A stretch of 22,098 nucleotides of DNA from positions 1-22,098 of IMG/VR virus record IMGVR_UViG_3300042521_002639. One strand, written 5' to 3'. The stretch is from a virus. The first letter of the stretch is position 1. Every line of letters starts with the position of its first letter. Shown piece after piece: positions 1 through 21,091 of this stretch. Under the pieces are notes generated by a model, which saw only the letters and a list, made by a program, of their open reading frames with translations, was not told the origin of the DNA and made no database searches. Both the position numbers and the translations under genes were made by a program.

Positions 1-150
1 ATTCTGGATTTAGAAGATAAGTCAAACTTCACCATAGATTATTCTAAAGACGGTTATCCAGCATTAAATGGCAAACACCCAAGCGAATTAGGACATCAGA
101 AAATAGCAGATTACATTATTAAACACTATGCATATCCTGTTCAACGGTGA
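1..150 (+). CDS. SGNH/GDSL-like protein, C-terminal fragment (copy 1)
   Basis: Frame 1 is open from the first base to a TGA at 148-150, giving the last 49 residues of a protein whose start lies outside the window. It ends with a block of the form H-P-S-E-L-G-H-Q-K-I-A, which matches the C-terminal block of the next gene (H-P-N-E-L-G-H-Q-K-I-A) almost residue for residue. In SGNH hydrolases this is block V, which supplies the catalytic His. The usual Asp three residues before the His is Asn here. The gene overlaps the next start by 23 bases. I infer that it is the first member of a tandem paralogous family; the N-terminal Ser block cannot be checked. Confidence 0.7.
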   Translation: MLDLEDKSNFTIDYSKDGYPALNGKHPSELGHQKIADYIIKHYAYPVQR

Positions 151-760
151 TTCATACACATGGGGAGATGAATTGCTTTATCGTTTAAGAGATCGGTTCA
201 GTAATCTCGTCTCTAAACATTATAATGCTACCAGCAACAACATCTCTATCTGTGGTAATAGCAACGATGCAATCGCTCGTACCACAATGGAATGGTTCTT
301 GCATAATAAAACCTGTGATCTAGCCATCATTCAACTTGCACCCATGTCAAGGTTTGAAGGTTGGAACCCACAAAAGAAAAAGTATTATCATGTTACCATT
401 CAAAAGACACCTGGATGGAAAGAATTTTATATTGAACATTATCAAGATAAACTAGCCGCTGATAATCTCTTTAAGAATTATTACCTCCTAGAACAATTCT
501 TTATCGCTCGTAAAATCAAATATGTCTTTATGCTTCATGACGCATGGGATCAGCATTTGGTTGAATCCAGTAACATTTGGAAATCTATGATTGTTCAAAA
601 ACCAATTTATTATATCCGTGGACATGACTTCATTGAGAATGTTATCTTGCCTGAGAAAGATAAAAAAGACTTGATTGTATCAAATGGTAATCATCCTAAT
701 GAATTAGGACATCAAAAGATCGCACAGCATATTATAGATACTATTGGAACTCTCCAATAA
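128..760 (+). CDS. SGNH/GDSL-like hydrolase (copy 2)
   Basis: A 210-residue protein of about the size of a single SGNH domain. Block I is F-N-G-D-S-Y-T-W-G with the nucleophile candidate Ser9. A block II-like stretch (I-C-G-N-S-N-D-A-I) follows near residue 43. The third block is I-I-Q-L-A-P-M-S-R-F-E rather than the canonical G-x-N-D. Block V has His189 in G-N-H-P-N-E-L-G-H, with Asn188 before it and Asn, not Asp, three residues upstream. SGNH family members are esterases or lipases, often removing or transferring acyl groups on glycans, but the substrate here is unknown. No signal peptide or membrane segment is visible, so a cytoplasmic role in the infected cell is inferred. The start overlaps the end of copy 1. 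This copy keeps the GDS motif that copies 3 and 4 have lost. Confidence 0.65.
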   Translation: MHILFNGDSYTWGDELLYRLRDRFSNLVSKHYNATSNNISICGNSNDAIARTTMEWFLHNKTCDLAIIQLAPMSRFEGWNPQKKKYYHVTIQKTPGWKEFYIEHYQDKLAADNLFKNYYLLEQFFIARKIKYVFMLHDAWDQHLVESSNIWKSMIVQKPIYYIRGHDFIENVILPEKDKKDLIVSNGNHPNELGHQKIAQHIIDTIGTLQ

Positions 761-766
761 AAATAA

Positions 767-1156
767 ATGTTACTCTCTTCTCCAGATGAGTATCTTTATC
801 AATTACAAGCGAACAATAAGGCAGACGCAATAAGATTATGGAGAAAAGCGATTAAGGAAGCATGGAATAACTGTTGCGCGTATTGCGGGCAAAACAAAGA
901 TCAAATGACAATTGATCATATCCTTCCGCAAGCATTAGGCGGAACAGATGAACTCATGAACGTTGTTTGTTGCTGTGAAGATTGTAACCGCGATAAATCC
1001 CATACAGAAGTTGAGATCTGGTATTTTCAGCAATACTTCTTTTCTCAAGAACGCTGGGATAAACTTGAAGACTGGCGAACACCCAAAAAAGATGGTACGA
1101 AGAAAAGATATATAAGGGGTAAAAATGGAACCCCAACAAGATCTATTGTTCAATGA
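767..1156 (+). CDS. HNH endonuclease
   Basis: A 129-residue protein with a standard zinc-supported HNH core: C37-A-Y-C40, then I-D-H-I-L-P with the catalytic His51, G-G at 58-59, Asn65, a second knuckle C70-E-D-C73 and N74-R-D-K. HNH enzymes cut DNA with one metal ion, and small free-standing ones are common in T4-like phages as homing endonucleases. The basic C-terminal tail (K-K-D-G-T-K-K-R) could help DNA binding. The gene starts six bases after copy 2 of the SGNH-like family ends, and its TGA overlaps the ATG of copy 3 (ATGA at 1153-1156). It therefore sits inside the paralogous array without breaking a gene. No flanking intron structure was seen. Family assignment is firm; a mobile role is inferred. 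Confidence 0.88.
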   Translation: MLLSSPDEYLYQLQANNKADAIRLWRKAIKEAWNNCCAYCGQNKDQMTIDHILPQALGGTDELMNVVCCCEDCNRDKSHTEVEIWYFQQYFFSQERWDKLEDWRTPKKDGTKKRYIRGKNGTPTRSIVQ

Positions 1157-1803
1157 AGATATATTTTAATGGTTGTTCTGTAACAGAAGGTGCAGAATTA
1201 AAAGATCCTCATCAAGATCGTTATAGTAGATTATTATGTGATTATTATGGCGCGGAAGAAACAAATAATGCTGCAGCTGGGGGATCTAATGATAGAATTG
1301 TAAGGCAACTTTTAACGGAAGTTAATATTTCTGATTATGATCTTGGTGTCATACAAATGACACATCCATCAAGAACAGAATTTTATACAAAACGGTGTTG
1401 GATACCAATGAATATACAGCATGATTATGTGTCTTGGAATTCAGAACAAACTGAAAAAAATGTTTTATCCCGTTTCTCTTGGTGGAACTGGGGAGAAAAA
1501 ACAGAAATGGATATTATGAAAAATGCTTGGAAAGAATATTATATGCATATTGTAACCGACGAGTTTTTAAAAAACAAAGAACTTGTTCATAATCTAACAA
1601 TTAGAAATTATTTTAAATCTAAAAATATTCCTTTAATCCTATTAACAATTAACCACAAGACATCTATTCTTGAGCATTTTGATATTAGTCTTGCTAATAA
1701 CAAATCATATCCATTAGCTCCTAACAGACATCCTAATGAAGAAGGGCACCACATGATTTTTCAGGACATTGTAAATTATATAAAAGATGAAAATTTACTT
1801 TGA
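1153..1803 (+). CDS. SGNH/GDSL-like protein with GCS motif (copy 3)
   Basis: A 216-residue paralogue of the genes on either side. The N-terminus reads M-K-I-Y-F-N-G-C-S-V-T-E-G, aligning with copy 2 but with Cys8 in place of the Asp of G-D-S, while Ser9 is kept. A G-G-S-N-D-R-I block follows, then V-I-Q-M-T-H-P-S-R-T-E-F. The C-terminal block has His193 in N-R-H-P-N-E-E-G-H, with Pro at the place of the usual catalytic Asp. A Ser-His dyad is therefore possible, but the canonical SGNH blocks I, III and V are each altered. A roughly 30-residue insert rich in Trp (about residues 95-125) distinguishes it from copy 4. The start overlaps the HNH gene by four bases and the end overlaps copy 4 by 17. 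Function unknown; it may be a divergent hydrolase or a ligand-binding derivative. Confidence 0.65.
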   Translation: MKIYFNGCSVTEGAELKDPHQDRYSRLLCDYYGAEETNNAAAGGSNDRIVRQLLTEVNISDYDLGVIQMTHPSRTEFYTKRCWIPMNIQHDYVSWNSEQTEKNVLSRFSWWNWGEKTEMDIMKNAWKEYYMHIVTDEFLKNKELVHNLTIRNYFKSKNIPLILLTINHKTSILEHFDISLANNKSYPLAPNRHPNEEGHHMIFQDIVNYIKDENLL

Positions 1804-2383
1804 TGGATGTTCTTGGACTTATGGGACAGAACTTGAGAATAAAGAACAAGAACGTTTTAGTCGATTACTCTGCAATGACCTTAGTGCAGAAGAAACAAAT
1901 CTAGCTTGTCCAGGTGGATCAAACCAAAGAATAATCAGAAACTTAATAACAGAGACAGATATCACCCAATATGATCTGGCAGTCATTCAATTAACGTATT
2001 CATCCAGAACAGAGTTTCATGATGGCACAACTTGGAGAACAATTAATGTTAATCCAAGACGGGTGAATATTAAAAATGATTTATTACCCAATGTAACCCA
2101 TCAGGATTTTTGGGAATATTATTACACCAACATTTGTAATGATATCTATTTTAAAGTACAAGAAAAGATCGCAGTTGAAACAATCACACACTATTGTAAA
2201 TCTAAAAATGTCCCACTTATATTAATGTCTATTGACCACACGACAGAATTGAATTATGATTTAATCTTGACAAAACCATGGAAACGGTATCCATCCGCAC
2301 CAAAGAAGCACCCGACAAGAGAAGGGCATAAAATGATTACTAAAGACATTCTAAATATAATAACGTCTCGGCAACTGTTATGA
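1787..2383 (+). CDS. SGNH/GDSL-like protein with GCS motif (copy 4)
   Basis: A 198-residue close paralogue of copy 3; about half of the first 80 residues are identical by eye. Block I is F-D-G-C-S-W-T-Y-G with Ser9 kept and Cys8 replacing Asp. The second block is P-G-G-S-N-Q-R-I-I. The third is V-I-Q-L-T-Y-S-S-R-T-E-F. His175 lies in P-K-K-H-P-T-R-E-G-H, again with Pro instead of Asp three residues before His. The ATG lies inside copy 3, and the two frames share 17 bases, which suggests tandem duplication followed by translational coupling. The stop overlaps the next short gene (ATGA at 2380-2383). No signal peptide is seen. Substrate unknown; the neighbouring carbamoyltransferase and glycosyltransferase point to glycan chemistry, which is inference. 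Confidence 0.65.
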   Translation: MKIYFDGCSWTYGTELENKEQERFSRLLCNDLSAEETNLACPGGSNQRIIRNLITETDITQYDLAVIQLTYSSRTEFHDGTTWRTINVNPRRVNIKNDLLPNVTHQDFWEYYYTNICNDIYFKVQEKIAVETITHYCKSKNVPLILMSIDHTTELNYDLILTKPWKRYPSAPKKHPTREGHKMITKDILNIITSRQLL

Positions 2384-2538
2384 CGTACAATGTTTATATC
2401 GATCAAAAGATCGCGTTTGAAAATTTATCAAAAGAAGATGCTGAGAAACGTGCTAGAGAAATACAGCAAATGATTTCCGCTGGCATTCCAACTGAATATA
2501 CTGTTGAACAAATTAAAGTTATTAAAATTAAACCATGA
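2380..2538 (+). CDS. Short conserved-looking protein, 52 aa
   Basis: A 52-residue reading frame beginning M-T-Y-N-V-Y-I-D-Q-K and ending V-I-K-I-K-P. It looks like a strand, a charged helix (about residues 17-32) and a second strand. Support comes from coupling at both ends: its ATG overlaps the stop of SGNH copy 4 and its TGA overlaps the ATG of the next short gene, each as ATGA. The type resembles short cyanomyovirus proteins of unknown role, from memory. No motif allows a functional call. Confidence 0.6.
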   Translation: MTYNVYIDQKIAFENLSKEDAEKRAREIQQMISAGIPTEYTVEQIKVIKIKP

Positions 2539-2630
2539 ACCCTATTGCAAAGCTGATCCGATGGATTAAAGGCGAATATAAGTTGTGGAAACTTCGTAGA
2601 CAAGATCCATACATTTATGAAGATGATTGA
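2535..2630 (+). CDS. Very short basic protein, 31 aa
   Basis: A 31-residue frame coupled by ATGA to the gene before it and ending two bases before the ATG of the carbamoyltransferase. The N-terminal two thirds are basic and amphipathic (I-R-W-I-K-G-E-Y-K-L-W-K-L-R-R) and the end is acidic after D-P-Y-I-Y-E. A D-P-[FY]-I-Y ending is something I recall from small cyanomyovirus proteins, which favours a real gene, but that is memory and not a search. Function unknown. It might simply couple translation into the next gene. Confidence 0.5.
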   Translation: MNPIAKLIRWIKGEYKLWKLRRQDPYIYEDD

Positions 2631-2632
2631 TC

Positions 2633-4018
2633 ATGATTGGAATAAGTGAAGGATTTCATGATGCTGCAATAGCAGTTGTTAATGGCGGTAAGATCAAATT
2701 TGCCGCTCATGCAGAACGATATTCTAGAGTAAAGCATGATAAGCATTTAAATCTACCAGTATGTGCAGAAGCACTGCTCCACACTGAAGATGATATTATT
2801 GCATTCTATGAACGTCCTTGGTTGAAGCGTACTCGTCAATTGTTTGCAGGACAGTACAAGAGTGCATTTAAAGAAAGGAGTATCTACATTACTCCTAATC
2901 AGTATTACTCACATCACCTCTCCCATGCTGCTGCAGCATTTCAGACATCACCATATTCCGATGCTGCATGTGTTGTCGTAGACAGTATTGGTGAATGGGA
3001 TACTGCTTCAATCTGGTATGCTCAGATGGTGGAGGGTTGTGCTAAGTATAAAAAAGTATGGTCACAGAAGTATCCAAGTTCTATTGGATTGTGGTATTCT
3101 TCTTATACGAAATGGGCAGGTCTAAGACCCTTAGACGAAGAATACATCTTTATGGGTATGGCAGCGTTCGGTAAGCCCTTATACGTGGAACAAGCGCGTA
3201 AACTGCTCTCTAGAAATAACCACAAGGGCTTTTCCACCTCTCTTGAAGGAAATCCAGAAGACAACTCAAAGAGTGCAGAGGTTGTTCTTTATGAGGAACT
3301 GAGAAAAATTTTCAATAGAGCAAGGCAATATAGTAATAATATTTGTTATGGAGGAGGAGTTGCTTTAAATTGTGTAGTGAATGCTAAGCTACAAAACGAG
3401 CACCCGTTCATGTGGATTATGCCTAATCCTGGAGACGCTGGAGCTTCCTTAGGGGCAGCTTTATTATCTTATGGTGGTAAAGTCATCTTCACCCCATATT
3501 TGGGTGAAAACATTCAAAAAACGGTTAATCCAAAGGAAGTCGTTGACACATTACTGCACAGAGGCATGTGTGGGATTGCAAATGGTCCCGCTGAGTTTGG
3601 ACCACGGGCTTTAGGTAATAGAAGTCTTCTAGCGGATCCTAGAACTCTACAGATGAAGGATTTAGTTAACACTGTAAAGAAGAGACAAAAGTTTCGTCCA
3701 TTTGCTCCTGCTATTCTGGAAGAATATTGTCAAGACTATTTCCGTATGCCAGCAGAAAGTCGTTATATGTCCTTCGTATACGATTGTAAGCGTCCTGATG
3801 AGATCCCAGCATGTGTTCACGTAGATAATACTGCTAGAGTTCAAACAGTTCCTACATGGTCTTCTAGCATCCTTAGGGAAATACTTGAATGCTGGTATCA
3901 ACGTACTGGTTGTCCAGTTCTTCTCAATACATCACTCAATATTCGTGGAATGCCTATTGTAAATACTTGGAATGATGCAAAAGAATTTTCTGAAAAATAT
4001 AGTATTGAGGTTTTTTAA
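2633..4018 (+). CDS. Carbamoyltransferase, NodU/CmcH family
   Basis: A 461-residue enzyme expected to use carbamoyl phosphate and ATP, through carbamoyl-AMP, to O-carbamoylate a sugar or other hydroxyl. The N-terminal Kae1-like domain has G-I-S-E-G-F-H-D-A-A, A-E-R-Y-S-R-V-K-H-D, the metal-binding pattern H94-H-L-S-H98, F-M-G-M-A-A-F-G, G-G-G-V-A-L-N and P-G-D-A-G-A-S-L-G-A-A. The C-terminal YrdC-like domain has E-F-G-P-R-A-L-G-N-R-S (321-331), F-R-P-F-A-P-A and L-N-T-S-L-N-I-R-G. Family members are usually about 550-600 residues, so this is a compact form, with the C-terminal end short. I chose the ATG at 2633 because it starts directly at the conserved M-I-G-I-S; an in-frame TTG at 2627 is the alternative. 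The stop overlaps the radical SAM start (TAATG). Substrate unknown. Confidence 0.9.
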   Translation: MIGISEGFHDAAIAVVNGGKIKFAAHAERYSRVKHDKHLNLPVCAEALLHTEDDIIAFYERPWLKRTRQLFAGQYKSAFKERSIYITPNQYYSHHLSHAAAAFQTSPYSDAACVVVDSIGEWDTASIWYAQMVEGCAKYKKVWSQKYPSSIGLWYSSYTKWAGLRPLDEEYIFMGMAAFGKPLYVEQARKLLSRNNHKGFSTSLEGNPEDNSKSAEVVLYEELRKIFNRARQYSNNICYGGGVALNCVVNAKLQNEHPFMWIMPNPGDAGASLGAALLSYGGKVIFTPYLGENIQKTVNPKEVVDTLLHRGMCGIANGPAEFGPRALGNRSLLADPRTLQMKDLVNTVKKRQKFRPFAPAILEEYCQDYFRMPAESRYMSFVYDCKRPDEIPACVHVDNTARVQTVPTWSSSILREILECWYQRTGCPVLLNTSLNIRGMPIVNTWNDAKEFSEKYSIEVF

Positions 4019-5205
4019 TGAATAATGATGTAATCTGCTCACAACCATTCACTAAAATTCATAATCTGCCAGGAAAAAATTACGCTCCTTGTTGTTGGTC
4101 AAATTATTCTCAATTTGGTCCACAAAATACTTTACCATTTGACTATTTTGATGGAGAAGAATTTAGAAGAATTAGAAAAGAAATGCTTTTAGGTGATAAA
4201 ACTGAGTTTCTAAAATCTGTTTGTAAAAAATGTTATAAACTTGAAGATGAAAATAACGATTCTCCTAGAAAACAATTTCCTGTAAATGAAAGGATGTTAG
4301 AAAATTTTAATGCAGATGGATCATTAAAAGAAACAAATAATAGATTTGTTCATGTATCAATTAATGTTTATGGCAATTATTGTAATTTAGAATGTTATGC
4401 ATGTAAATCCAGTAATTCAACATCTAGAAATAGTGCTTTAAAAAAATTAGATCCTAAATGGAGCAAAATTAGTGGTTTTTCAATTACAGACAATTTAATT
4501 GCAGATGTTGATAAAGATCAATTTAATAATATTGTTAATCAATTAGTAAAGTATTCACATATTATTGCTACTGTAGAATTGATTGGTGGAGAACCAATGC
4601 TAATGAAATCGCATTTTAAACTTTTAGATGCCTTGATAACATGTGGTCAATCTAAACAAATCATGTTGTCTTATGTTTCAAACATGACATTGATGAATTT
4701 AGATATTATGAAAAAATATTTTGATAATTTTAAACGTACTCACATTCAATGGAGTGTTGATGCTTTAGAAGAAAAAAATTATTGGTTAAGATATCCAACT
4801 GATTGGAACTCAACAATAAAAAATGTTTTTGATGTTCAAAGGTATTTGAATATTACAAAAAAAGGAAAAATAAGAGCAACAATTACTCCCAGTTTACTTG
4901 CAATTCCAAGTTTATTACAAACATATAAATGGCTTTATAGTAGAAATTTAATATCTAAGGAAAATTTCATATTCAACGTCATAACTGAACCAGAAATTTT
5001 AAAACCAAGAAATCTTCCAAATAAATTGAAAGAAAAAATTGCATTATCGGTAAAGTCAGTATCTGAGTTTCATTATAATGATCTGATGCAAGAAAGAAAT
5101 GAAAAAGAATTCCAATTAGCTATTCAATATTGTGATGAATTGGACAAATCTAGAGGTACTAATTGGAGATCTATATTTCCAGAAGTTGCAAAGTATGTAA
5201 ATTGA
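4018..5205 (+). CDS. Twitch-domain radical SAM enzyme
   Basis: A 395-residue protein. The [4Fe-4S] motif that reductively cleaves S-adenosylmethionine is C122-N-L-E-C126-Y-A-C129, the CxxxCxxC signature, and E-L-I-G-G-E-P-M-L follows as the usual GGEP strand. In front of the core lies a region with C7, C25-C26, C69 and C72 (A-P-C-C-W-S and C-K-K-C), followed by E-D-E-N-N-D-S-P-R. This fits the N-terminal twitch type of radical SAM protein, in which extra cysteines hold an auxiliary cluster. Such genes occur in marine T4-like phages. The reaction is unknown; peptide or sugar modification are both possible. It follows the carbamoyltransferase without a gap. Base composition is visibly lower in GC than that gene (see findings). 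Confidence 0.88.
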   Translation: MNNDVICSQPFTKIHNLPGKNYAPCCWSNYSQFGPQNTLPFDYFDGEEFRRIRKEMLLGDKTEFLKSVCKKCYKLEDENNDSPRKQFPVNERMLENFNADGSLKETNNRFVHVSINVYGNYCNLECYACKSSNSTSRNSALKKLDPKWSKISGFSITDNLIADVDKDQFNNIVNQLVKYSHIIATVELIGGEPMLMKSHFKLLDALITCGQSKQIMLSYVSNMTLMNLDIMKKYFDNFKRTHIQWSVDALEEKNYWLRYPTDWNSTIKNVFDVQRYLNITKKGKIRATITPSLLAIPSLLQTYKWLYSRNLISKENFIFNVITEPEILKPRNLPNKLKEKIALSVKSVSEFHYNDLMQERNEKEFQLAIQYCDELDKSRGTNWRSIFPEVAKYVN

Positions 5206-5210
5206 CATTA

Positions 5211-5218
5211 TCTAAATA
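5211..5218 (+). promoter_or_regulatory. Possible late promoter octamer
   Basis: TCTAAATA differs at one base from the T4 late consensus TATAAATA. It lies in one of the few true intergenic gaps of this part, just after the radical SAM stop and 62 bases before the glycosyltransferase start. Location supports it; in AT-rich DNA one mismatch is weak evidence. Confidence 0.4.
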
Positions 5219-5222
5219 ACGT

Positions 5223-5259
5223 GGTATCATGCCTTTGGGTGATACCCGTTTACGTAAAC
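5223..5259 (+). promoter_or_regulatory. Hairpin followed by 12-base palindrome
   Basis: GGTATCA at 5223-5229 pairs with TGATACC at 5240-5246 around a ten-base loop that could itself pair CC with GG. Directly after it, GTTTACGTAAAC at 5248-5259 is a perfect palindrome. No T-run follows, so this is not a standard terminator. It could be an mRNA leader structure or a protein-binding site; function is unknown. Confidence 0.4.
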
Positions 5260-5297
5260 AAATCAAATTGAAGTATATTCATGGCAAAAGGTTTTAA
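5229..5297 (+). CDS. Possible 22-aa basic leader peptide
   Basis: An ATG at 5229 opens a 22-codon frame beginning M-P-L-G-D-T-R-L-R-K-Q and ending in TAA at 5295-5297. It overlaps the glycosyltransferase start by 17 bases, the same overlap length as between SGNH copies 3 and 4. The peptide is rich in Lys and Arg. The frame also spans the hairpin and palindrome, so the open frame could be accidental. It may be a coupling leader or not a gene at all. Confidence 0.3.
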   Translation: MPLGDTRLRKQIKLKYIHGKRF

Positions 5298-6042
5298 AGT
5301 GGTTACAAAACCACCCACATCATCTTCTAATAATACAGATGGTTTTAATTTAGAAGAAGCAAAACAAATGATTAAAGACAAGAGCATTGTCTTTTGTCTT
5401 CCTGGAAGAGGCGTTTCATATACATATCTAAAGAATTTTGTACAACTCTGTTTCGATCTTGTACAAAATGGTGCTTCAATCCAGATTTCACAAGACTATT
5501 CTTCAATGGTCAACTTTGCCCGTTGCAAGTGTCTTGGTGCTAACGTCCTTCGTGGTCCCGATCAACTTCCTTGGGATGGTAAACTGAAGTATGATTACCA
5601 ACTTTGGATTGATAGTGACATCGTATTCAATACAGAATCTTTCTATCGCCTAGTGTGGATGGATAAAGATATCTCTTGTGGATGGTATGCAACTGAAGAT
5701 GGTGTAACTACATCAGTTGCACATTGGCTTGAAGAAGATGACTTCAAGAACAATGGTGGTGTTATGAACCATGAGATGGTTGATGGCATTCAAAAGCGTC
5801 GTAAACCATTCACTGTTGATTACACTGGGTTTGGTTGGACACTAATCAAACACGGTGTGTTTGAGCATCCAGAGATGAAGTATCCTTGGTTTGCACCTCA
5901 GATGCAAGTTTTTGAATCTGGTGAAGTTCAGGATATGTGTGGTGAAGACGTTTCGTTCTGTCTTGATGCTATTAAGGCAGGATTTGAAATTTGGTGTGAT
6001 CCAATCTGTCGAGTAGGACACGAGAAGACACGAGTTATCTAA
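5281..6042 (+). CDS. Glycosyltransferase-like protein, GT-A type
   Basis: A 253-residue protein with the layout of a nucleotide-sugar-dependent GT-A transferase. After a polar N-terminus of about 30 residues comes a first strand (S-I-V-F-C-L-P-G-R-G), then a nucleotide-binding region with N-F-A-R-C-K. The strand L-W-I-D111-S-D113-I-V-F carries the metal-binding DxD. The acceptor half has D-Y-T-G-F-G-W and C-G-E-D-V-S-F at 220-226, typical of the catalytic acidic region, and a late His (247) in V-G-H-E. The family transfers a sugar to glycan, lipid or protein; donor and acceptor are unknown. No membrane segment is visible. It ends the accessory cluster, which favours a joint role in surface or virion glycan modification (inference). 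Confidence 0.72.
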   Translation: MAKGFKVVTKPPTSSSNNTDGFNLEEAKQMIKDKSIVFCLPGRGVSYTYLKNFVQLCFDLVQNGASIQISQDYSSMVNFARCKCLGANVLRGPDQLPWDGKLKYDYQLWIDSDIVFNTESFYRLVWMDKDISCGWYATEDGVTTSVAHWLEEDDFKNNGGVMNHEMVDGIQKRRKPFTVDYTGFGWTLIKHGVFEHPEMKYPWFAPQMQVFESGEVQDMCGEDVSFCLDAIKAGFEIWCDPICRVGHEKTRVI

Positions 6043-6074
6043 TATATTAAGTAGTATTTTGTGTCGGATTACAC

Positions 6075-6239
6075 ATGGAGAAATACGATATATATTGTCA
6101 GGGGAGAAAAATTTACTCTTCCGTAACGGAAGAAGAAATGTTGGACATCACGCAAGAACTTGCTGATCAATTTTATACGAATGGTACTCCCCATCCTGAC
6201 GATATTGTGGTAGAATATCTTGGTTACGACATTGAGTAA
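6075..6239 (+). CDS. Short acidic protein, 54 aa, unknown
   Basis: A 54-codon frame starting M-E-K-Y-D-I-Y-C-Q-G and ending L-G-Y-D-I-E, too short for a usual length cut-off. A predicted strand, a helix rich in Glu (about residues 18-34) and a second strand suggest a small folded domain. It lies 32 bases after the glycosyltransferase and three bases before the next short gene. It resembles small hypothetical proteins of cyanomyoviruses, from memory. No functional motif seen. Confidence 0.6.
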   Translation: MEKYDIYCQGRKIYSSVTEEEMLDITQELADQFYTNGTPHPDDIVVEYLGYDIE

Positions 6240-6242
6240 ATT

Positions 6243-6386
6243 ATGGCAGTGAAAAGATCTTTGAGTGGTTCAAAAATTATTGAATCATCTCCAAAAAATA
6301 CACGTCAGGGACGCTCCAAAAACACAAAGCTTTCTGCGACTAGTAGAAATTGTGCTAAAAAGCGTTATAGAGGTCAAGGAAAATAA
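6243..6386 (+). CDS. Short highly basic protein, 47 aa
   Basis: A 47-residue frame starting M-A-V-K-R-S-L-S-G-S-K, with 14 Lys or Arg and a single acidic residue, also rich in Ser. Such a composition suggests binding to nucleic acid or to an acidic surface. I recognise the type as a recurrent short hypothetical of cyanomyovirus genomes (memory, not a search). It starts three bases after the 54-aa gene ends, so the two are probably co-transcribed. It could act in DNA packaging, in a host takeover step or on the ribosome; nothing in the sequence decides. Confidence 0.6.
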   Translation: MAVKRSLSGSKIIESSPKNTRQGRSKNTKLSATSRNCAKKRYRGQGK

Positions 6387-6436
6387 TTCGTAATTAATAA
6401 GTTGGTTTGAATTCCACTTCACATCATTTATCGAAG

Positions 6437-6571
6437 ATGGAGTTTATCCATACAAAAAATAGAATATGCTTATCAACAGTATTAATGTCCTTGATGGTAA
6501 CATCAGCAGTGATAAAATTGACTGATGCTTCTATCACTATAGATAAATTATTATCAACATATACAAAATAA
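6437..6571 (+). CDS. Possible small membrane protein, 44 aa
   Basis: A 44-codon frame with one hydrophobic stretch (residues about 11-27, I-C-L-S-T-V-L-M-S-L-M-V-T-S-A-V-I) preceded by basic residues, in the style of a single membrane segment or signal anchor. It stands between the 47-aa gene and the terminator with nothing else in the gap. No ribosome-binding site is evident. It could also be the open part of untranslated sequence. Confidence 0.4.
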   Translation: MEFIHTKNRICLSTVLMSLMVTSAVIKLTDASITIDKLLSTYTK

Positions 6572-6580
6572 CACATACAT

Positions 6581-6614
6581 AAGACAGGAAATATCTCCTG
6601 TCTTTTTTGTTTTT
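6581..6614 (+). terminator. Intrinsic terminator
   Basis: AAGACAGGA at 6581-6589 pairs perfectly with TCCTGTCTT at 6596-6604 around a six-base loop. A T-rich tail follows (TTTTTTGTTTTT from 6603 to 6614). It would end transcription coming from the accessory and short-gene block. The tail runs straight into the ATG at 6615. Confidence 0.88.
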
Positions 6615-7238
6615 ATGGCATATCTAAATCACAATTTACCTACTTTCACTTGTTACATTCGTAATGAATTTCTTTTTAATCATACAAAGGGATTTGGGGA
6701 AGTAACTTTATGTGATGTGCATTCAGTTGCTTCGTTGGAAAAGCATGTTCCTCTTTTTGAAGCATACTTAGAAAATGGCGTAAATTGGACAAGAAGACCA
6801 ATACATGCTTTCTGCTGGAAACCAGACGCACCCATTCCAAAACTTGAAGAGTGTATGTGGTGGGATTGTTTTTCTCCATATATCGACGTACAAGTTCGTT
6901 CAAGACTTGCAAACTTACGTGCAGATCTTATTAATTTTCGTGGAGAAAAAAATCAGGGAACATATATGTTTACATTAGATTGGTCATGGGAATCAAAATC
7001 TACTTTGAATACCAATTTTAGTGAAACACCCGAGCATAAATGTGCCCATTTCTTTAAAATGGATAATGGAAATTTTTATGCTTATCCAAATAATAAAATT
7101 ATTTGGTATGATGATGCATGGACAAAGAATAGAATTACTAAAAATCCAGGATATATAATTGATCTAACTGAATATTCAGTTGAGAATTTAAGAAAAATTG
7201 AAACTTCAGATGATTTCATGTATGAAGTGAAAAATTGA
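6615..7238 (+). CDS. Conserved-looking phage protein, 207 aa, unknown
   Basis: A 207-residue soluble protein, rich in aromatic residues (many Trp, Phe and Tyr). The stretches G-V-N-W-T-R-R-P-I-H-A-F-C-W and W-W-D-C-F-S-P-Y look strongly constrained. Further on are R-A-D-L-I-N-F-R-G-E-K, P-E-H-K-C-A-H-F-F and I-I-W-Y-D-D-A-W. I recall similar hypothetical proteins in cyanomyovirus genomes near gp25, but know no function. No signal peptide, membrane segment or enzymatic motif is seen. The ATG follows the terminator T-run with no space for a ribosome-binding site. Either translation starts on read-through RNA, or the true start is further in; the sequence right after the first ATG looks coding. 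Confidence 0.78.
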   Translation: MAYLNHNLPTFTCYIRNEFLFNHTKGFGEVTLCDVHSVASLEKHVPLFEAYLENGVNWTRRPIHAFCWKPDAPIPKLEECMWWDCFSPYIDVQVRSRLANLRADLINFRGEKNQGTYMFTLDWSWESKSTLNTNFSETPEHKCAHFFKMDNGNFYAYPNNKIIWYDDAWTKNRITKNPGYIIDLTEYSVENLRKIETSDDFMYEVKN

Positions 7239-7288
7239 GCGATAGAAACCGCTATAAAAGTTCTGATTAATCACAATCAGATACTAAA

Positions 7289-7429
7289 ATGGAATTTCAG
7301 GAGCAAAAAACTCACAATTTAATCATTCAGAGCAAACTTCATGAAAAAATTCGTAATGATGAGGATTATGATGACTGGGAATATGGAACAGAACCCAGTT
7401 ATGGAATGCCTATAAATACGAATAAATAA
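7289..7429 (+). CDS. Short acidic protein, 46 aa, unknown
   Basis: A 46-codon frame starting M-E-F-Q-E-Q-K-T-H and ending P-I-N-T-N-K, with an acidic middle (N-D-E-D-Y-D-D-W-E-Y). It occupies most of the 209-base gap before gp25 and its end contains the late promoter octamer. Sequence before it (7239-7288) holds only a weak six-base stem (CTGATT at 7263-7268 with AATCAG at 7275-7280). It may be real, since small genes fill the other gaps here; no function can be given. Confidence 0.5.
   Translation: MEFQEQKTHNLIIQSKLHEKIRNDEDYDDWEYGTEPSYGMPINTNK
7411..7418 (+). promoter_or_regulatory. Late promoter, exact T4 octamer
   Basis: TATAAATA is the full T4 late promoter consensus recognised by the gp55 sigma factor with gp33 and the sliding clamp. 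It lies 29 bases before the gp25 start, giving a short leader, inside the last codons of the 46-aa gene. A second partial match, AATAAATA at 7421-7428, follows. It should drive the baseplate genes late in infection. Confidence 0.75.
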
Positions 7430-7447
7430 ACGAAGATCCTATAAAAA

Positions 7448-7852
7448 GTGCCTCTTCAAAAAATTTCTAGAGGTTTCAAAGACATTTCATTGTCAATGAA
7501 ACGTCATCCAGTTACAAATGATATCCTTCCTCTAAAAAATGAGGATGCAATCAAGCGTTCTGTTCAAAATTTAGTAAGAATTCAAGTTGGAGAGGTCTTT
7601 TTTAACAATCTAATTGGCACTAGAATTAGTGGAGCACTATTTGAATTAGCAACAAGCGATTTTACTGCTCCAATAAAAACAGAAATTGAAACTGTTATTA
7701 CAAACTTTGAGCCAAGAGTTGTACTAAAAAGCGTTGAAGTTGATCCAGATCCTGATAATAATGCTCTAGAAGTCACAATATCTTATGACATAGTTGGTTT
7801 ATCAACGCCTACACAGACAGTTACCTTTATCTTAGAACCAACTAGACTATAA
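7448..7852 (+). CDS. 25: Baseplate wedge protein gp25
   Basis: A 134-residue protein, close to the 132 of T4 gp25. It has the gpW/gp25 fold signature, including the diagnostic E88-P-R90 core motif in N-F-E-P-R-V-V-L, which is shared with TssE of type VI secretion. gp25 joins gp6 in the core bundle of each baseplate wedge and helps start sheath polymerisation. The start is GTG: an in-frame TAA at 7442-7444 excludes anything upstream, and the next ATG (Met17) would remove conserved sequence. The stop overlaps the gp6 start (TAATG). A late promoter lies directly upstream. It is ordinary in every respect except the GTG start. Confidence 0.94.
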   Translation: MPLQKISRGFKDISLSMKRHPVTNDILPLKNEDAIKRSVQNLVRIQVGEVFFNNLIGTRISGALFELATSDFTAPIKTEIETVITNFEPRVVLKSVEVDPDPDNNALEVTISYDIVGLSTPTQTVTFILEPTRL

Positions 7853-9732
7853 TGGCACTAACACAATTTACAAATTTAAATTTTGAGGATATAAAATCCT
7901 CAATTAAGGATTATCTAAGAGCAAATACAAACTTTACAGACTATGACTTTGAAGGATCTAATCTTTCAGTCATCATAAATTTGCTTGCATATAATTCTTA
8001 TATCACCGCCTACAATACAAACATGGTGGTGAATGAAACTTTTATTGATTCCGCCACTTTGCGTGAGAACGTTGTATCTCTTGCACGTAATATTGGATAT
8101 GTACCACGATCAAAACGCGCTGCAAAAGCAACTGTAGACTTTTTTGTTAGTGGAATTTCTACAACAACAGACACAATTTCATTCCAACCAGGGGTTGTTG
8201 CGAATGGAAGTGTTTCGGATGTCAATTTTATCTTTTCTCTACCAGAAAAAGTTACCGTAGCAGCGCAAAATGGGTCTTCTTTTGGTAGTTTAGAAATTTA
8301 TCAAGGTCAATATTTAGAAAATTCTTGGACAGTTAACAATTCTCAACCAAATCAGCGTTATATTATCCCAAATGACAGCGTTGATACGTCAACTTTGCGT
8401 ATAAAGGTAAAAAATACATCCACAGATACAACTTTTACTGAGCATCAACTAGTTGATAATATCCTCGGTATTACTTCTACGTCAAATATTTACTTAATCC
8501 AAGAAACTACAGACGAAAAATACGAAATTTTGTTTGGTGATGGTGTTTTTGGTAAGAAATTACAGTCAGGAAACGTAATTACTGCATCTTACATTAAGAC
8601 AAATGGTAAAGATGGTAATGGAGTAACTGATTTTAGGTTTGCTGGAACAATTTTTGATGAAAATAACGCAAATATAACCTCATTTGCCGCTGATTTAACA
8701 GCACAAGTACCATCTGAAAACGGAGATGAGATAGAACCTGTCGAAAGTGTCAAATACTTTGCTCCTAGACTGTATTCATCTCAGCATAGAGCAGTAACTG
8801 CAAGTGATTATGAGGCAATTTTACCAACATTGTATCCAAATATTGAAAGTGTGAGTGCTTATGGTGGAGAAGATCTAACTCCACCCCAATATGGACGAGT
8901 TTTTATTGCTGCTAAACCAAGAAATGGATCTTTCTTATCAGATTTCACTAAAAAGCAACTTTTACAATCCTTAAAGAACTATTCTGTTGCTGGAATTGTT
9001 CCTCAGTTTGAGGACTTAAAGTATCTTTATGTAGAAATTGACAGTTATGTTTACTATAACGCAAATTTCGTTGGTGATCCAAATAATCTGAAAACTGATG
9101 TTATTTCTGCAATTACTTCTTATGCTAGAAGTTCAGAAATGAACCAATTTGGGGGAAGATTTAAATATAGTAAAACCTGTTCACTAATTGATAACGTCAA
9201 TACTGCTATTACTTCAAATATTACAACAGTAAGGATTAGAAGAGATCTTGTTGCACGTATAAATCAACCTGCACAATATGAATTGTGTTTTGATAATGAA
9301 TTCTATACAGGTAAGAAAAATTATAATGTCAAGAGTACAGGATTTAGCGTATTTGGTATAGATGGTACATGTTATTTTTCTGATGAAGTCGTAAATGGAT
9401 CTAATATCGGAAATCTTTTCCTTTTCCAAATTCTTTCCGATGAAGAGACGAATATTTTATCAACCAAATTTGGAACAGTCAATTATAGCACTGGTGAAAT
9501 CCTTATAGATACTGTAAATATTACATCAACCAGTTTAGCAGACAATATTATTGAAGTTCAAGCAATTCCGCTATCAAATGATGTTTTAGCGAGAAAGGAA
9601 TTGTATTTGCAATTAGATGTTTCTAAGAGCAATTTCTACATGAAGCAAGATAGCATCTCTTCAGGTGCAAATACTTCAGGAACAAGATTTGATATTCAAT
9701 CAAGCTATCAAAACGGTAAGAAAACAAGATAA
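7852..9732 (+). CDS. 6: Baseplate wedge protein gp6
   Basis: A 626-residue protein in the expected place after gp25; T4 gp6 has 660. The N-terminus (F-T-N-L-N-F-E-D-I, Y-L-R-A-N-T-N-F-T-D-Y-D-F-E-G-S-N-L, L-L-A-Y-N-S-Y) and S-A-T-L-R-E-N-V-V-S-L-A-R-N-I-G-Y-V-P are typical of the gp6/gpJ-like wedge family. So is the middle stretch F-A-P-R-L-Y-S-S-Q-H-R-A-V-T-A-S-D-Y with Y-P-N-I-E-S-V-S-A-Y-G-G-E-D. gp6 forms the ring of dimers that holds the wedges together around the hub and pairs with gp25 and gp7. The gene starts on the last base of the gp25 stop and is followed by the giant gene after three bases, so the three are probably one message. Confidence 0.93.
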   Translation: MALTQFTNLNFEDIKSSIKDYLRANTNFTDYDFEGSNLSVIINLLAYNSYITAYNTNMVVNETFIDSATLRENVVSLARNIGYVPRSKRAAKATVDFFVSGISTTTDTISFQPGVVANGSVSDVNFIFSLPEKVTVAAQNGSSFGSLEIYQGQYLENSWTVNNSQPNQRYIIPNDSVDTSTLRIKVKNTSTDTTFTEHQLVDNILGITSTSNIYLIQETTDEKYEILFGDGVFGKKLQSGNVITASYIKTNGKDGNGVTDFRFAGTIFDENNANITSFAADLTAQVPSENGDEIEPVESVKYFAPRLYSSQHRAVTASDYEAILPTLYPNIESVSAYGGEDLTPPQYGRVFIAAKPRNGSFLSDFTKKQLLQSLKNYSVAGIVPQFEDLKYLYVEIDSYVYYNANFVGDPNNLKTDVISAITSYARSSEMNQFGGRFKYSKTCSLIDNVNTAITSNITTVRIRRDLVARINQPAQYELCFDNEFYTGKKNYNVKSTGFSVFGIDGTCYFSDEVVNGSNIGNLFLFQILSDEETNILSTKFGTVNYSTGEILIDTVNITSTSLADNIIEVQAIPLSNDVLARKELYLQLDVSKSNFYMKQDSISSGANTSGTRFDIQSSYQNGKKTR

Positions 9733-17934: not shown

Positions 17935-17937
17935 ATA
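17930..17937 (+). promoter_or_regulatory. Late promoter octamer overlapping a stop codon
   Basis: CATAAATA is one base from the T4 late consensus and 13 bases before the next start. The TAA inside it (17932-17934) is the stop codon of the giant gene. The same octamer recurs at the next junction, which strengthens both. Confidence 0.65.
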
Positions 17938-20900: not shown

Positions 20901-21088
20901 ATACATTAAACTTTAGTGGTTTAGGATCTGGTGGTGGTAATTTCTATGGTGAATATAGTTGGGCTAAATTTACATCAGGAAGATCATCTGGATTAGCGTT
21001 TACTTGCAACCCTTTAAATGGATTAACTGGTATTTCAACTGCACCACAAATTGTTAGAACTACAAAGTTATCTTTAGATTACTCATAA
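17951..21088 (+). CDS. Large modular baseplate/tail structural protein, 1045 aa
   Basis: A 1045-residue protein between the giant gene and gp8. Its length is near that of T4 gp7 (1032), but I see no sequence link that would justify the name. It is beta-rich and modular: two H-x-x-x-x-G-E-x-x-Y type modules (residues about 50-136 and 269-340) and an I-N-D-E-I-M-R-I module with D-R-R-W-M-G-T-S (about 168-233). Two copies of a V-N-N/I-N-D-x-[IV]-[FL]-Q-K-P-x-x-x-Y module lie near 395 and 678, and G-Y-S-G-S-G-Y near 485. These are shared with the preceding giant protein. A structural role in the outer baseplate or as part of a fibre-like element is inferred. It is preceded by its own late promoter motif. 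A patch of high GC lies inside (19321-19500). Confidence 0.78.
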   Translation: MGFQLGSVNKQYNSATETFRYSFNLTHEGDPIFHKVFDGSNTSSVLLGADTFVIDNHFFVTGEPLYYNAGPGNTAISINPSSTGVGGATTLPQRVFAIKIAENKFKVAAATTLAFAGDAIDLTSVGIGTTHSFTAEKQNSKCIIALDNIIQSPIYKRIGATTTLSSINNRILEVSDISIFKNYDLIQINDEIMRIQVIGFNGVSNQMLVDRRWMGTSFGGHSAGDTVQLVFGDYNIINDVITFADVPFGGLRYTVGFSSENVNLTSSSFTALSDIFTTGSQVLIRSLTPPSPLQSNENYFLIKNSENNYSFSSSLDNANVGIAITLTSAGIGTHNLVYVDVTNGSSFQGRSFIRSNYDGNLIIDDISQNFTGIAKTFTIKSSGVNTTGITSDFGVILVNNIFQKPDVDYNFIGGSSTGITSIRFTGNSDATVEAYSTSDVNANKLPRKGLIVSLANSEGYGYQPQYVGTGTAVVSGFGTITVALGYSGSGYRNGPTTYRVHVNGGNPTTGAAGTFTVLNGNIDKIFINTPGVGYTWTNVPVVSFDAPIPYDDIRLISSSTGIGASASIVVGSGLSITSFQLNNIGYGFTVGEQLRIAGIPTVTSIGSTFANAIFTVKETRDDEFAGWVLGKLQVLDDFSSEFNSVKTTFTITENGVPLSIEKTPGSPINLEDVLLIFINDVLQKPGDAYTFEGGTQITFVEPPVAGSSLQILFYRGTDADIDTTTALDTIKIGDGVTILKNPNQIIPIEQSERIVRAIVSRDTIQTNNYKGQGISQSTSPLRPVVWCQQQEDLFVDGIKVSKSRVEYASKIKPTARIIKNITTTDNIFYADGGSLIFSKTEDPNTTSFDVQIIDSDKDNTGFGTTTFIKPVETVSSVSVLGDEGIITGVGSTSQGLQFNFFIPLNSPLRDAPFGNITVTGISTGDYFVISRSNIGNGVTALSQDRSTTVGLATQFLDGVYQVSHIDPVGTGLSMRVHVNIATNHTLNFSGLGSGGGNFYGEYSWAKFTSGRSSGLAFTCNPLNGLTGISTAPQIVRTTKLSLDYS

Positions 21089-21091
21089 ATA
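21084..21091 (+). promoter_or_regulatory. Late promoter octamer overlapping a stop codon
   Basis: CATAAATA again, with the TAA at 21086-21088 serving as stop of the 1045-aa gene. It lies 21 bases before the gp8 ATG, a normal late leader length. Confidence 0.65.

What the first reader, a model, noticed from the sequence alone, without database searches (positions are those of the whole stretch)
2633..6042. Carbamoyltransferase, twitch radical SAM and glycosyltransferase in one phage cluster
Three biosynthetic enzymes stand next to an SGNH family directly upstream of the baseplate genes. Together they could make or alter a carbamoylated, acylated or otherwise modified glycan on the host surface (exclusion of other phages) or on the virion. 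I know of no defined phage pathway with this combination; this is the best candidate for an undescribed system in the window.
Basis: inference. Interest (0 to 1): 0.62.

Follow-up and report, generated by a model that had tools for sequence, protein, structure and literature searches.

The report
Cyanophage island of glycan-decorating enzymes
A virus of ocean cyanobacteria carries, just ahead of its tail-baseplate genes, a fast-changing set of enzymes that look fit to add or remove small chemical groups on sugars; the three enzymes first noticed turn out to be one fixed gene, one swappable gene and one independent core gene rather than a single pathway.

Summary
The three enzymes are real: an O-carbamoyltransferase (CT, 2633-4018), an N-twitch radical SAM protein (rSAM, 4018-5205) and a probable glycosyltransferase (phrog_1574, 5281-6042). 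Upstream lie three and a half SGNH-like genes and an HNH gene; gp25-gp6-gp7 follow. The virus is a T4-like cyanophage (Kyanoviridae).

They are not one unit. (1) The phrog_1574 gene is a baseplate-region core gene. It sits before gp25 in cyanophages that lack CT nearby, and has its own conserved sigma-70-type promoter between it and the CT/rSAM block. (2) CT is fixed at this spot in one clade (24 of 25 assessable contigs; 0 of 19 outside). (3) rSAM is a swappable cassette, cleanly absent from several relatives and about 52% identical where its neighbours are 89-96%.

Relatives show a larger structure: a hypervariable island of SGNH-like genes and an almost unrecognised sulfotransferase family, up to 8 copies of each. 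Reciprocal empty sites are visible.

In picocyanobacteria, CT and sulfotransferase homologues neighbour SGNH/AlgX-like, glycosyltransferase and polysaccharide-export genes. Decoration of a host surface glycan is therefore the best mechanism (inferred). Virion-glycan decoration is the main rival. 5hmC-DNA carbamoylation is disfavoured.

The parts
1..150 (+). 3' end of a further SGNH-like gene (cut by the contig start)
   Evidence: matches the 3' end of the SGNH copy upstream in near-identical contigs L003/L005/L012; repeat 63-119 vs 679-735
128..760 (+). SGNH-like protein 1 (210 aa)
   Evidence: PF13472 0.0097, weak; member of the multi-copy family
767..1156 (+). free-standing HNH endonuclease (129 aa); possible driver of island exchange (inference)
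   Evidence: PF14279 6e-13, PF01844 2.5e-9; present in 11 of 26 non-redundant islands
1153..1803 (+). SGNH-like protein 2 (216 aa); ATGA overlap with the HNH stop
   Evidence: AF2 model pLDDT 87; best PDB folds are GDSL esterases
1787..2383 (+). SGNH-like protein 3 (198 aa); tandem relative of copy 2
   Evidence: 47% identical to copy 2; DNA repeat
2380..2538 (+). small ORF (52 aa) between cassettes
   Evidence: conserved in L013 and L018; in L013 HNH joins it directly with no SGNH genes between
2535..2630 (+). small ORF (31 aa); left edge of the conserved block
   Evidence: similarity to L004, L013, L014, L015 and L018 begins at 2528-2535
2633..4018 (+). O-carbamoyltransferase (CT), clade-specific version
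   Evidence: PF16861/PF02543, phrog_1601; TobZ/GdmN/NovN profile matches E 1e-47 to 8e-69
4018..5205 (+). radical SAM protein with N-terminal twitch domain, exchangeable cassette
   Evidence: NF033640 248 bits, cut-off 170; CxxxCxxC and GGEP invariant; empty site in L015, L016, L020, L022
5202..5230 (+). conserved sigma-70-type promoter for the third enzyme gene (TTGACA-N17-TATCAT), with CTAAATA inside the spacer
   Evidence: best promoter-like site of 1-7900; a site with >=10/12 matches in 42 of 47 distinct loci
5281..6042 (+). probable GT-A-type glycosyltransferase (phrog_1574), core gene of the baseplate region
   Evidence: phrog_1574 9.5e-118; weak phrog_34859 glycosyltransferase match; next to gp25 across cyanophages
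7448..9732 (+). baseplate wedge genes gp25 and gp6 (synteny anchor)
   Evidence: phrog_261, phrog_219

Best explanation
This is the right-hand end of a hypervariable decoration-enzyme island in a T4-like phage of picocyanobacteria. Shown: in one phage clade a CT is fixed between the island and the block promoter - phrog_1574 gene - gp25 - gp6 - gp7. The island to its left, and the slot to its right, hold exchangeable cassettes: SGNH-like genes, an almost unrecognised sulfotransferase family, radical SAM genes and others, which differ between close relatives at fixed junctions. Inferred: these enzymes, in which no export domain was recognised, add or remove small groups (carbamate, sulfate, acyl, a radical-based change) on sugar hydroxyls of a glycan precursor made in the infected cell. 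The most likely target is the host's lipopolysaccharide or exopolysaccharide, so that other phages no longer find their receptor. Fast turnover of cassettes would follow from an arms race over surface chemistry. The phrog_1574 gene is a core gene under its own promoter; whether it works on the same glycan is open.
For: Island content, 26 non-redundant loci with >=5 kb upstream of CT: SGNH-like in 25, sulfotransferase-like in 24, about 3 copies of each per locus, at most 8 of each. Sulfotransferase identity: profile vs PDB 3rnl 1.9e-7, AF2 pLDDT 92.9, Foldseek to carbohydrate 3-O-sulfotransferases 6e-5. SGNH fold: nearest is an acetyl-mannan esterase, 4e-6. Surveys centred on the phrog_1574 gene: CT upstream in 24 of 25 assessable clade contigs, 0 of 19 outside. 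Empty sites and swaps: rSAM absent in L015/L016/L020/L022; the SGNH pair absent in L013, which instead has two sulfotransferases at a site that is empty in the window; L004 is 99.1% identical from 2528 on but has a sulfotransferase to its left. Promoter. Host: psbA/psbD in relatives, psbA 96% identical to Synechococcus RCC307. Host-family genomes: CT homologues in 101/300, sulfotransferase homologues in 41/300, beside SxtJ, SGNH/AlgX-like, glycosyltransferase, Wzz and polysaccharide-export genes.
Against: No activity, acceptor or glycan is shown, and the window itself holds no complete glycan pathway. No O-antigen ligase, sugar-nucleotide synthesis or export gene was recognised in it. The SGNH-like proteins keep Ser and His but lack the usual block-V Asp and block-III Asn, so hydrolysis or transfer is unsure. 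The host-family neighbourhoods are few (6 CT, 4 sulfotransferase loci) and had no background control. Closeness to baseplate genes is equally compatible with a virion target.
Confidence: 0.5

Rival explanations
1. Virion decoration: the phrog_1574 protein puts a sugar on a baseplate or tail-fibre protein, and the CT, sulfotransferases, SGNH-like proteins and radical SAM protein vary that glycan, to tune adsorption or hide the virion.
For: phrog_1574-gp25-gp6-gp7 order is conserved across cyanophages. The island lies at the virion block, and NATAAATA-type late-promoter motifs sit only before virion genes in the window (motif from PMC2984593). Known virion glycosylation in other phages is a precedent (own knowledge; PMC11256854 suggests it for a mycobacteriophage).
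Against: The phrog_1574 gene carries a sigma-70-type (early-type) promoter rather than a plain late one, and it is conserved where no decorating enzymes are near. Host-genome homologues of CT and sulfotransferase lie in cell polysaccharide contexts.
Confidence: 0.25
2. DNA hypermodification: the CT carbamoylates 5-hydroxymethylcytosine in phage DNA, as the enzyme of PMC8670742 does, giving 5-carbamoyloxymethylcytosine and protection from restriction.
For: Same enzyme family; that phage-linked enzyme was shown to act on 5hmdC (PMC8670742).
Against: That pathway pairs the CT with a thymidylate-synthase-type hydroxymethylase; no PF00303 in five relatives including records of 172 and 192 kb, although records may be incomplete. 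The verified enzyme is extremely remote from this CT clade in the tree (with a long-branch warning). A review found no evidence of modified nucleotides in cyanomyoviruses (PMC2984593). SGNH and sulfotransferase neighbours do not fit.
Confidence: 0.05
3. Small-molecule or modified-peptide synthesis: the radical SAM protein and partners make a secreted or intracellular metabolite, with CT and sulfotransferases as tailoring enzymes as in antibiotic or saxitoxin-type pathways.
For: Nearest solved CTs tailor natural products (NovN, GdmN, TobZ). Host CT homologues sit beside SxtJ. Weak radical SAM similarity to PapB-type peptide maturases (far below cut-off).
Against: No scaffold-building genes (NRPS, PKS, precursor peptide) were recognised in the island. 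The radical SAM gene is optional (13 of 52 non-redundant loci have it between CT and the third gene).
Confidence: 0.1
4. Passive hotspot: the site is a tolerated insertion hotspot moved by the HNH endonuclease, and most cassettes are hitchhikers with no shared function.
For: HNH in 11 of 26 non-redundant islands, fixed junctions, clean empty sites.
Against: Content is strongly biased to two families present in 25 and 24 of 26 islands. CT is conserved in parallel with gp6 (median 89% vs 91%). Genes are intact and tightly overlapping (198 of 249 junctions overlap by up to 30 nt).
Confidence: 0.1

Closest known systems
Lipopolysaccharide-gene clusters of large cyanomyoviruses (P-SSM2, S-SM2, S-SSM7; PMC3037559, PMC2984593)
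   Same: T4-like cyanophages; glycan-related enzymes; proposed to alter the host surface against other phages
   Different: Those clusters lie near hli03/phoH and are described as lipopolysaccharide-biosynthesis genes; here the site is ahead of gp25, with decoration enzymes (CT, SGNH-like, sulfotransferase, radical SAM) in swappable multi-copy arrays
Cyanophage carbamoyltransferases T4-GC 303/721/1350 (Sullivan 2010)
   Same: Carbam_trans family, 'Nol-like' phrog_1601
   Different: Separate clade in the tree, shorter (about 460 aa), fixed upstream of the phrog_1574 gene; three of the longest relatives (G001-G003) carry a second CT elsewhere as well
5-hydroxymethylcytosine carbamoyltransferase (PMC8670742)
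   Same: Phage-linked member of the family
   Different: Very remote in sequence; no hydroxymethylase partner found here
Sugar clusters with CT in Pelagibacter phages Mosig and HTVC008M
   Same: CT beside a MoaA-like gene, aminotransferase and methyltransferase (Mosig) or UDP-glucose dehydrogenase (HTVC008M)
   Different: No SGNH or sulfotransferase array seen in the stretches read, different site, distant CT
Marine virus AG-345-D19 (MH319727/MH319728)
   Same: SGNH-CT-rSAM and phrog_1574-gp25-gp6-gp7 on two contigs with the same order
   Different: Unannotated single-cell fragments; CT 65%, rSAM 44% identical

Membership tests
O-carbamoyltransferase (TobZ/NodU/NovN type) | PF02543 N-terminal plus PF16861 C-terminal domain | tested here: met
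   8.2e-31 and 1.7e-50, both above curated cut-offs
O-carbamoyltransferase (TobZ/NodU/NovN type) | metal-binding and carbamoyl-site motifs (HHxSH, Asp117, PGDAG, GPRALGNRS, NTSLN) conserved | tested here: met
   invariant or nearly invariant columns in A5 aligned to solved family members; their catalytic role is from knowledge of the family
O-carbamoyltransferase (TobZ/NodU/NovN type) | transfer of carbamoyl from carbamoyl phosphate to a hydroxyl | not testable with these tools
   needs an enzyme assay
5hmC carbamoyltransferase DNA-modification pathway | partner hydroxymethylase of the thymidylate synthase family | tested here: not met
   0 of 5 relatives have PF00303; control genomes ring; records may be incomplete
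5hmC carbamoyltransferase DNA-modification pathway | grouping with the verified enzyme | tested here: not met
   end branch of 5.7 changes per site to the verified enzyme; long-branch warning noted
N-twitch radical SAM (NF033640) | whole-protein score above cut-off, CxxxCxxC | tested here: met
   248.4 bits, cut-off 170; C122, C126, C129 and GGEP invariant, auxiliary Cys 7, 25, 26, 69, 72 invariant
Viperin (antiviral radical SAM, NF038283) | score above cut-off 180 | tested here: not met
   29.6 bits
SGNH/GDSL hydrolases | catalytic Ser (block I) and His (block V) | tested here: met
   Ser9 in 52/53, His193 in 50/53; fold match
SGNH/GDSL hydrolases | block III Asn and block V Asp three residues before His | tested here: not met
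   H-3 is never Asp; mostly Thr/Ser at position 70 where the GxND motif would be
Sulfotransferase (relatives' islands, not in the window) | sulfotransferase fold and family profile | tested here: met
   but only 5 of 57 members reach a Pfam sulfotransferase family
GT-A glycosyltransferase (5281-6042) | family profile or fold match | tested here: inconclusive
   phrog_34859 6.5e-5; no Pfam, no PDB profile hit, no match to host proteins; DxD motif present; fold not modelled
P-SSM2-type phage lipopolysaccharide cluster | sugar-nucleotide synthesis or transport genes in the cluster | tested here: not met
   none recognised in the window; one epimerase-like sequence (c55) was seen by eye in relative L064, not profile-tested

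The most novel reading that the evidence does not exclude
A combinatorial decoration system: one phage clade keeps a fixed CT and reshuffles arrays of an unrecognised sulfotransferase family, SGNH-like proteins and radical SAM proteins at set junctions, so that each phage lineage writes a different pattern of sulfate, acyl and carbamoyl groups on the surface glycan of the cell it infects, as a lineage-specific superinfection barrier.
Probability: 0.3. Interest if true: 0.78.

Novelty: new variant of a known kind. Interest (0 to 1): 0.5.

Why it matters
Host-surface alteration by lytic marine phages has been suggested since the P-SSM2 lipopolysaccharide genes, but without a defined chemistry. 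This island names concrete reactions (carbamoylation, sulfation, acyl transfer or removal), gives an evolutionary signature of rapid swapping beside a conserved core, and names phage and host groups in which to test it. It also describes a multi-copy phage sulfotransferase family that the standard libraries almost entirely miss.

Tried and rejected
Three enzymes as one operon or pathway: rejected (independent occurrence, separate promoter). DNA modification: no PF00303, remote tree position. Viperin-like antiviral rSAM: score far below cut-off. Genome scan with the rSAM alignment: no relatives. Rfam scan of the window: nothing. Glycosyltransferase confirmation by profile-profile comparison with host proteins: no signal. 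rSAM-SGNH fusion: suggested by one BFVD entry title but none found in the fetched loci. A hairpin just before the phrog_1574 gene (5218-5250, z -2.1) is seen in the near subclade only and was not pursued. Published labels of cyanophage CT as the aspartate-type pyrimidine enzyme (PMC9146016, PMC10436341): for this protein the Pfam families are Carbam_trans_N/C, so that label does not apply.
Full report
What is there. The window is a whole IMG/VR record of 22,098 bases from a T4-like phage. Gene order on the + strand: SGNH-like (end of one copy, then 128-760), HNH 767-1156, SGNH-like 1153-1803 and 1787-2383, two small ORFs (2380-2538, 2535-2630), CT 2633-4018, rSAM 4018-5205, phrog_1574 gene 5281-6042, small ORFs, phrog_3704 gene 6615-7238, gp25, gp6, gp7, gp8 (gp7 and gp8 named by position and by similarity to annotated relatives). 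The name 'glycosyltransferase' for the third gene is likely but weakly supported.

Host and lineage. Relatives are Kyanoviridae. Three of the long relatives carry psbA/psbD; the psbA of the closest long relative (171,943 bases) is 96% identical to Synechococcus sp. RCC307 and close to Cyanobium-type sequences. The phage therefore most likely infects picocyanobacteria (inferred from relatives).

Is it one unit? Starting from CT, 80 loci show CT - [variable slot] - phrog_1574 gene - gp25 - gp6 - gp7. That survey is chosen on CT, so I repeated it from the phrog_1574 gene. With the S-SSM7 gene as query, 38 contigs with gp25 and more than 2.5 kb upstream had no CT, SGNH or sulfotransferase there. 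With the window's gene, contigs whose gp25 is at least 60% identical had CT upstream in 24 of 25 assessable cases (4 more too short); of those under 60%, 0 of 19 with at least 2 kb upstream did (one CT match in L231 lies downstream and is a different, 33% identical protein). So the phrog_1574 gene is a core neighbour of the baseplate genes, and CT is a clade trait.

The slot between CT and the third gene, 52 loci non-redundant at 97% CT identity, holds one SGNH in 25, rSAM alone in 10, nothing in 10, SGNH plus rSAM in 3, other sets in 4. Among pairs with gp6 88-99% identical, median identities are gp6 91, phrog_1574 96, CT 89, rSAM 52: the rSAM is exchanged or evolves much faster than its neighbours, while CT keeps pace with the structural core.

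Exact junctions. In L015, L016, L020 and L022 the CT stop runs directly into the stretch that follows the rSAM stop in the window (TCTAAATAACGTGGTATCATGCC in the window, with small differences in some relatives), which is a clean empty site for the rSAM. In L013 the HNH stop overlaps the start of the 52-aa ORF (CAATGAGTTATAAC) where the window has SGNH 2 and 3; in turn L013 has two sulfotransferases after that ORF where the window goes straight on. L004 is 99.1% identical to the window from 2528 to 9079 but carries the end of a sulfotransferase to the left of that point. Similarity of five relatives starts at 2528-2535, so this is a fixed edge. Junctions are often ATGA (55) or TAATG (17) overlaps; 198 of 249 distinct island junctions overlap by up to 30 nt (no control was computed).

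Promoter. Just before the third gene the window has TTGACA-N17-TATCAT (5202-5230), the best promoter-like site in 1-7900 (single matches are common by chance, 42 found against 36 expected). The comparison carries the weight: in 42 of 47 distinct loci a site with at least 10 of 12 consensus positions lies there, nearly always with a 17-nt spacer, mean 10.7 against 8.2 in shuffled copies of the same stretches. It overlaps the end of whichever gene precedes it. Related sequences are not independent, but the preceding genes differ (CT, rSAM or SGNH) and the site stays. NATAAATA-type late motifs (PMC2984593) occur at 7412, 7422, 17931 and 21085, directly before virion genes. The third gene is therefore likely to have its own transcript start (inferred).

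The island. In 26 non-redundant loci with at least 5 kb to the left of CT, SGNH-like genes occur in 25 and family c6 in 24, 84 copies each, up to 8 per locus. c6 matches no Pfam or PHROG in the representative, and only 5 of 57 members reach a Pfam sulfotransferase family. Its profile finds PDB 3rnl (sulfotransferase) at 1.9e-7; the model (pLDDT 92.9) matches carbohydrate 3-O- and N-sulfotransferases. Other cassettes include HpcH/HpaI aldolase, 2OG-Fe(II) oxygenase, another sulfotransferase type (PF03567) and another radical SAM. The SGNH-like model matches GDSL esterases, first an acetyl-mannan esterase, and viral SGNH proteins. Ser9 and His193 are kept, the block-V Asp is absent: I call it SGNH-like and leave hydrolase or transferase open. 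The window's near-identical longer contigs show only SGNH copies in the held 5.9 kb, so this phage's own island may lack sulfotransferases there.

Function. CT is an O-carbamoyltransferase by domains and motifs. In 300 genomes of the host's family, CT homologues occur in 101, sulfotransferase homologues in 41, rSAM homologues in 4. Around six host CT genes are SxtJ (5), GDSL/SGNH or AlgX-like genes, family 2 glycosyltransferases, a sugar transferase, a cytidylyltransferase and a polysaccharide deacetylase. Around four host sulfotransferase genes are further sulfotransferases, glycosyltransferase, Wzz and polysaccharide-export genes. So a CT-SGNH neighbourhood also exists in the host family, in polysaccharide settings. 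No background rate was measured. Together with the known proposal for cyanophage lipopolysaccharide genes (PMC3037559, PMC2984593), host-surface glycan decoration is the best mechanism, at about 0.5. Virion decoration (0.25), a small molecule or peptide (0.1), a passive hotspot (0.1) and DNA modification (0.05) remain.

Known and new. CT in cyanophages (PMC3037559), CT beside radical SAM and sugar genes in a Pelagibacter phage, and the host-surface idea are known. I found no description of this clade's fixed CT, of the sulfotransferase/SGNH arrays, or of the reciprocal empty sites in the open-access library; that library is incomplete. I rate it a new variant of a known kind.

Noticed in passing
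L088:6941-7861 and relatives (alignment A1): A multi-copy sulfotransferase family in cyanophages that Pfam, PHROGs and NCBIfam almost entirely miss.
   Followed up: yes
L243:7512-16115 (G001) with L244, L245: A second CT region beside a PhoH-like and a ThyX-like gene (both by eye), with several radical SAM genes around it; CT here is 530 aa in L243, followed by a further 283-aa CT-like ORF.
   Followed up: partly
L244:9695-11265, L245:5939-7400, L365:7938-9410: The other kind of CT appears as separate N- and C-terminal-like ORFs in these phages.
   Followed up: no
window 7412-7428, 17931-17937, 21085-21091: ATAAATA occurs only 4 times (13.8 expected), each time directly before a virion gene: likely T4-type late promoters.
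   Followed up: partly
window 6615-7238: phrog_3704 is labelled 'ferredoxin' but the protein has no Pfam match even at E<=10; the label looks doubtful.
   Followed up: no
window 5218-5250: Hairpin and a GTTTACGTAAAC palindrome just after the promoter of the third gene, kept in the near subclade.
   Followed up: partly
L351-L356: Picocyanobacterial CT genes sit beside SxtJ and often an SGNH/AlgX-like gene, a possible conserved cellular trio of unknown function.
   Followed up: partly
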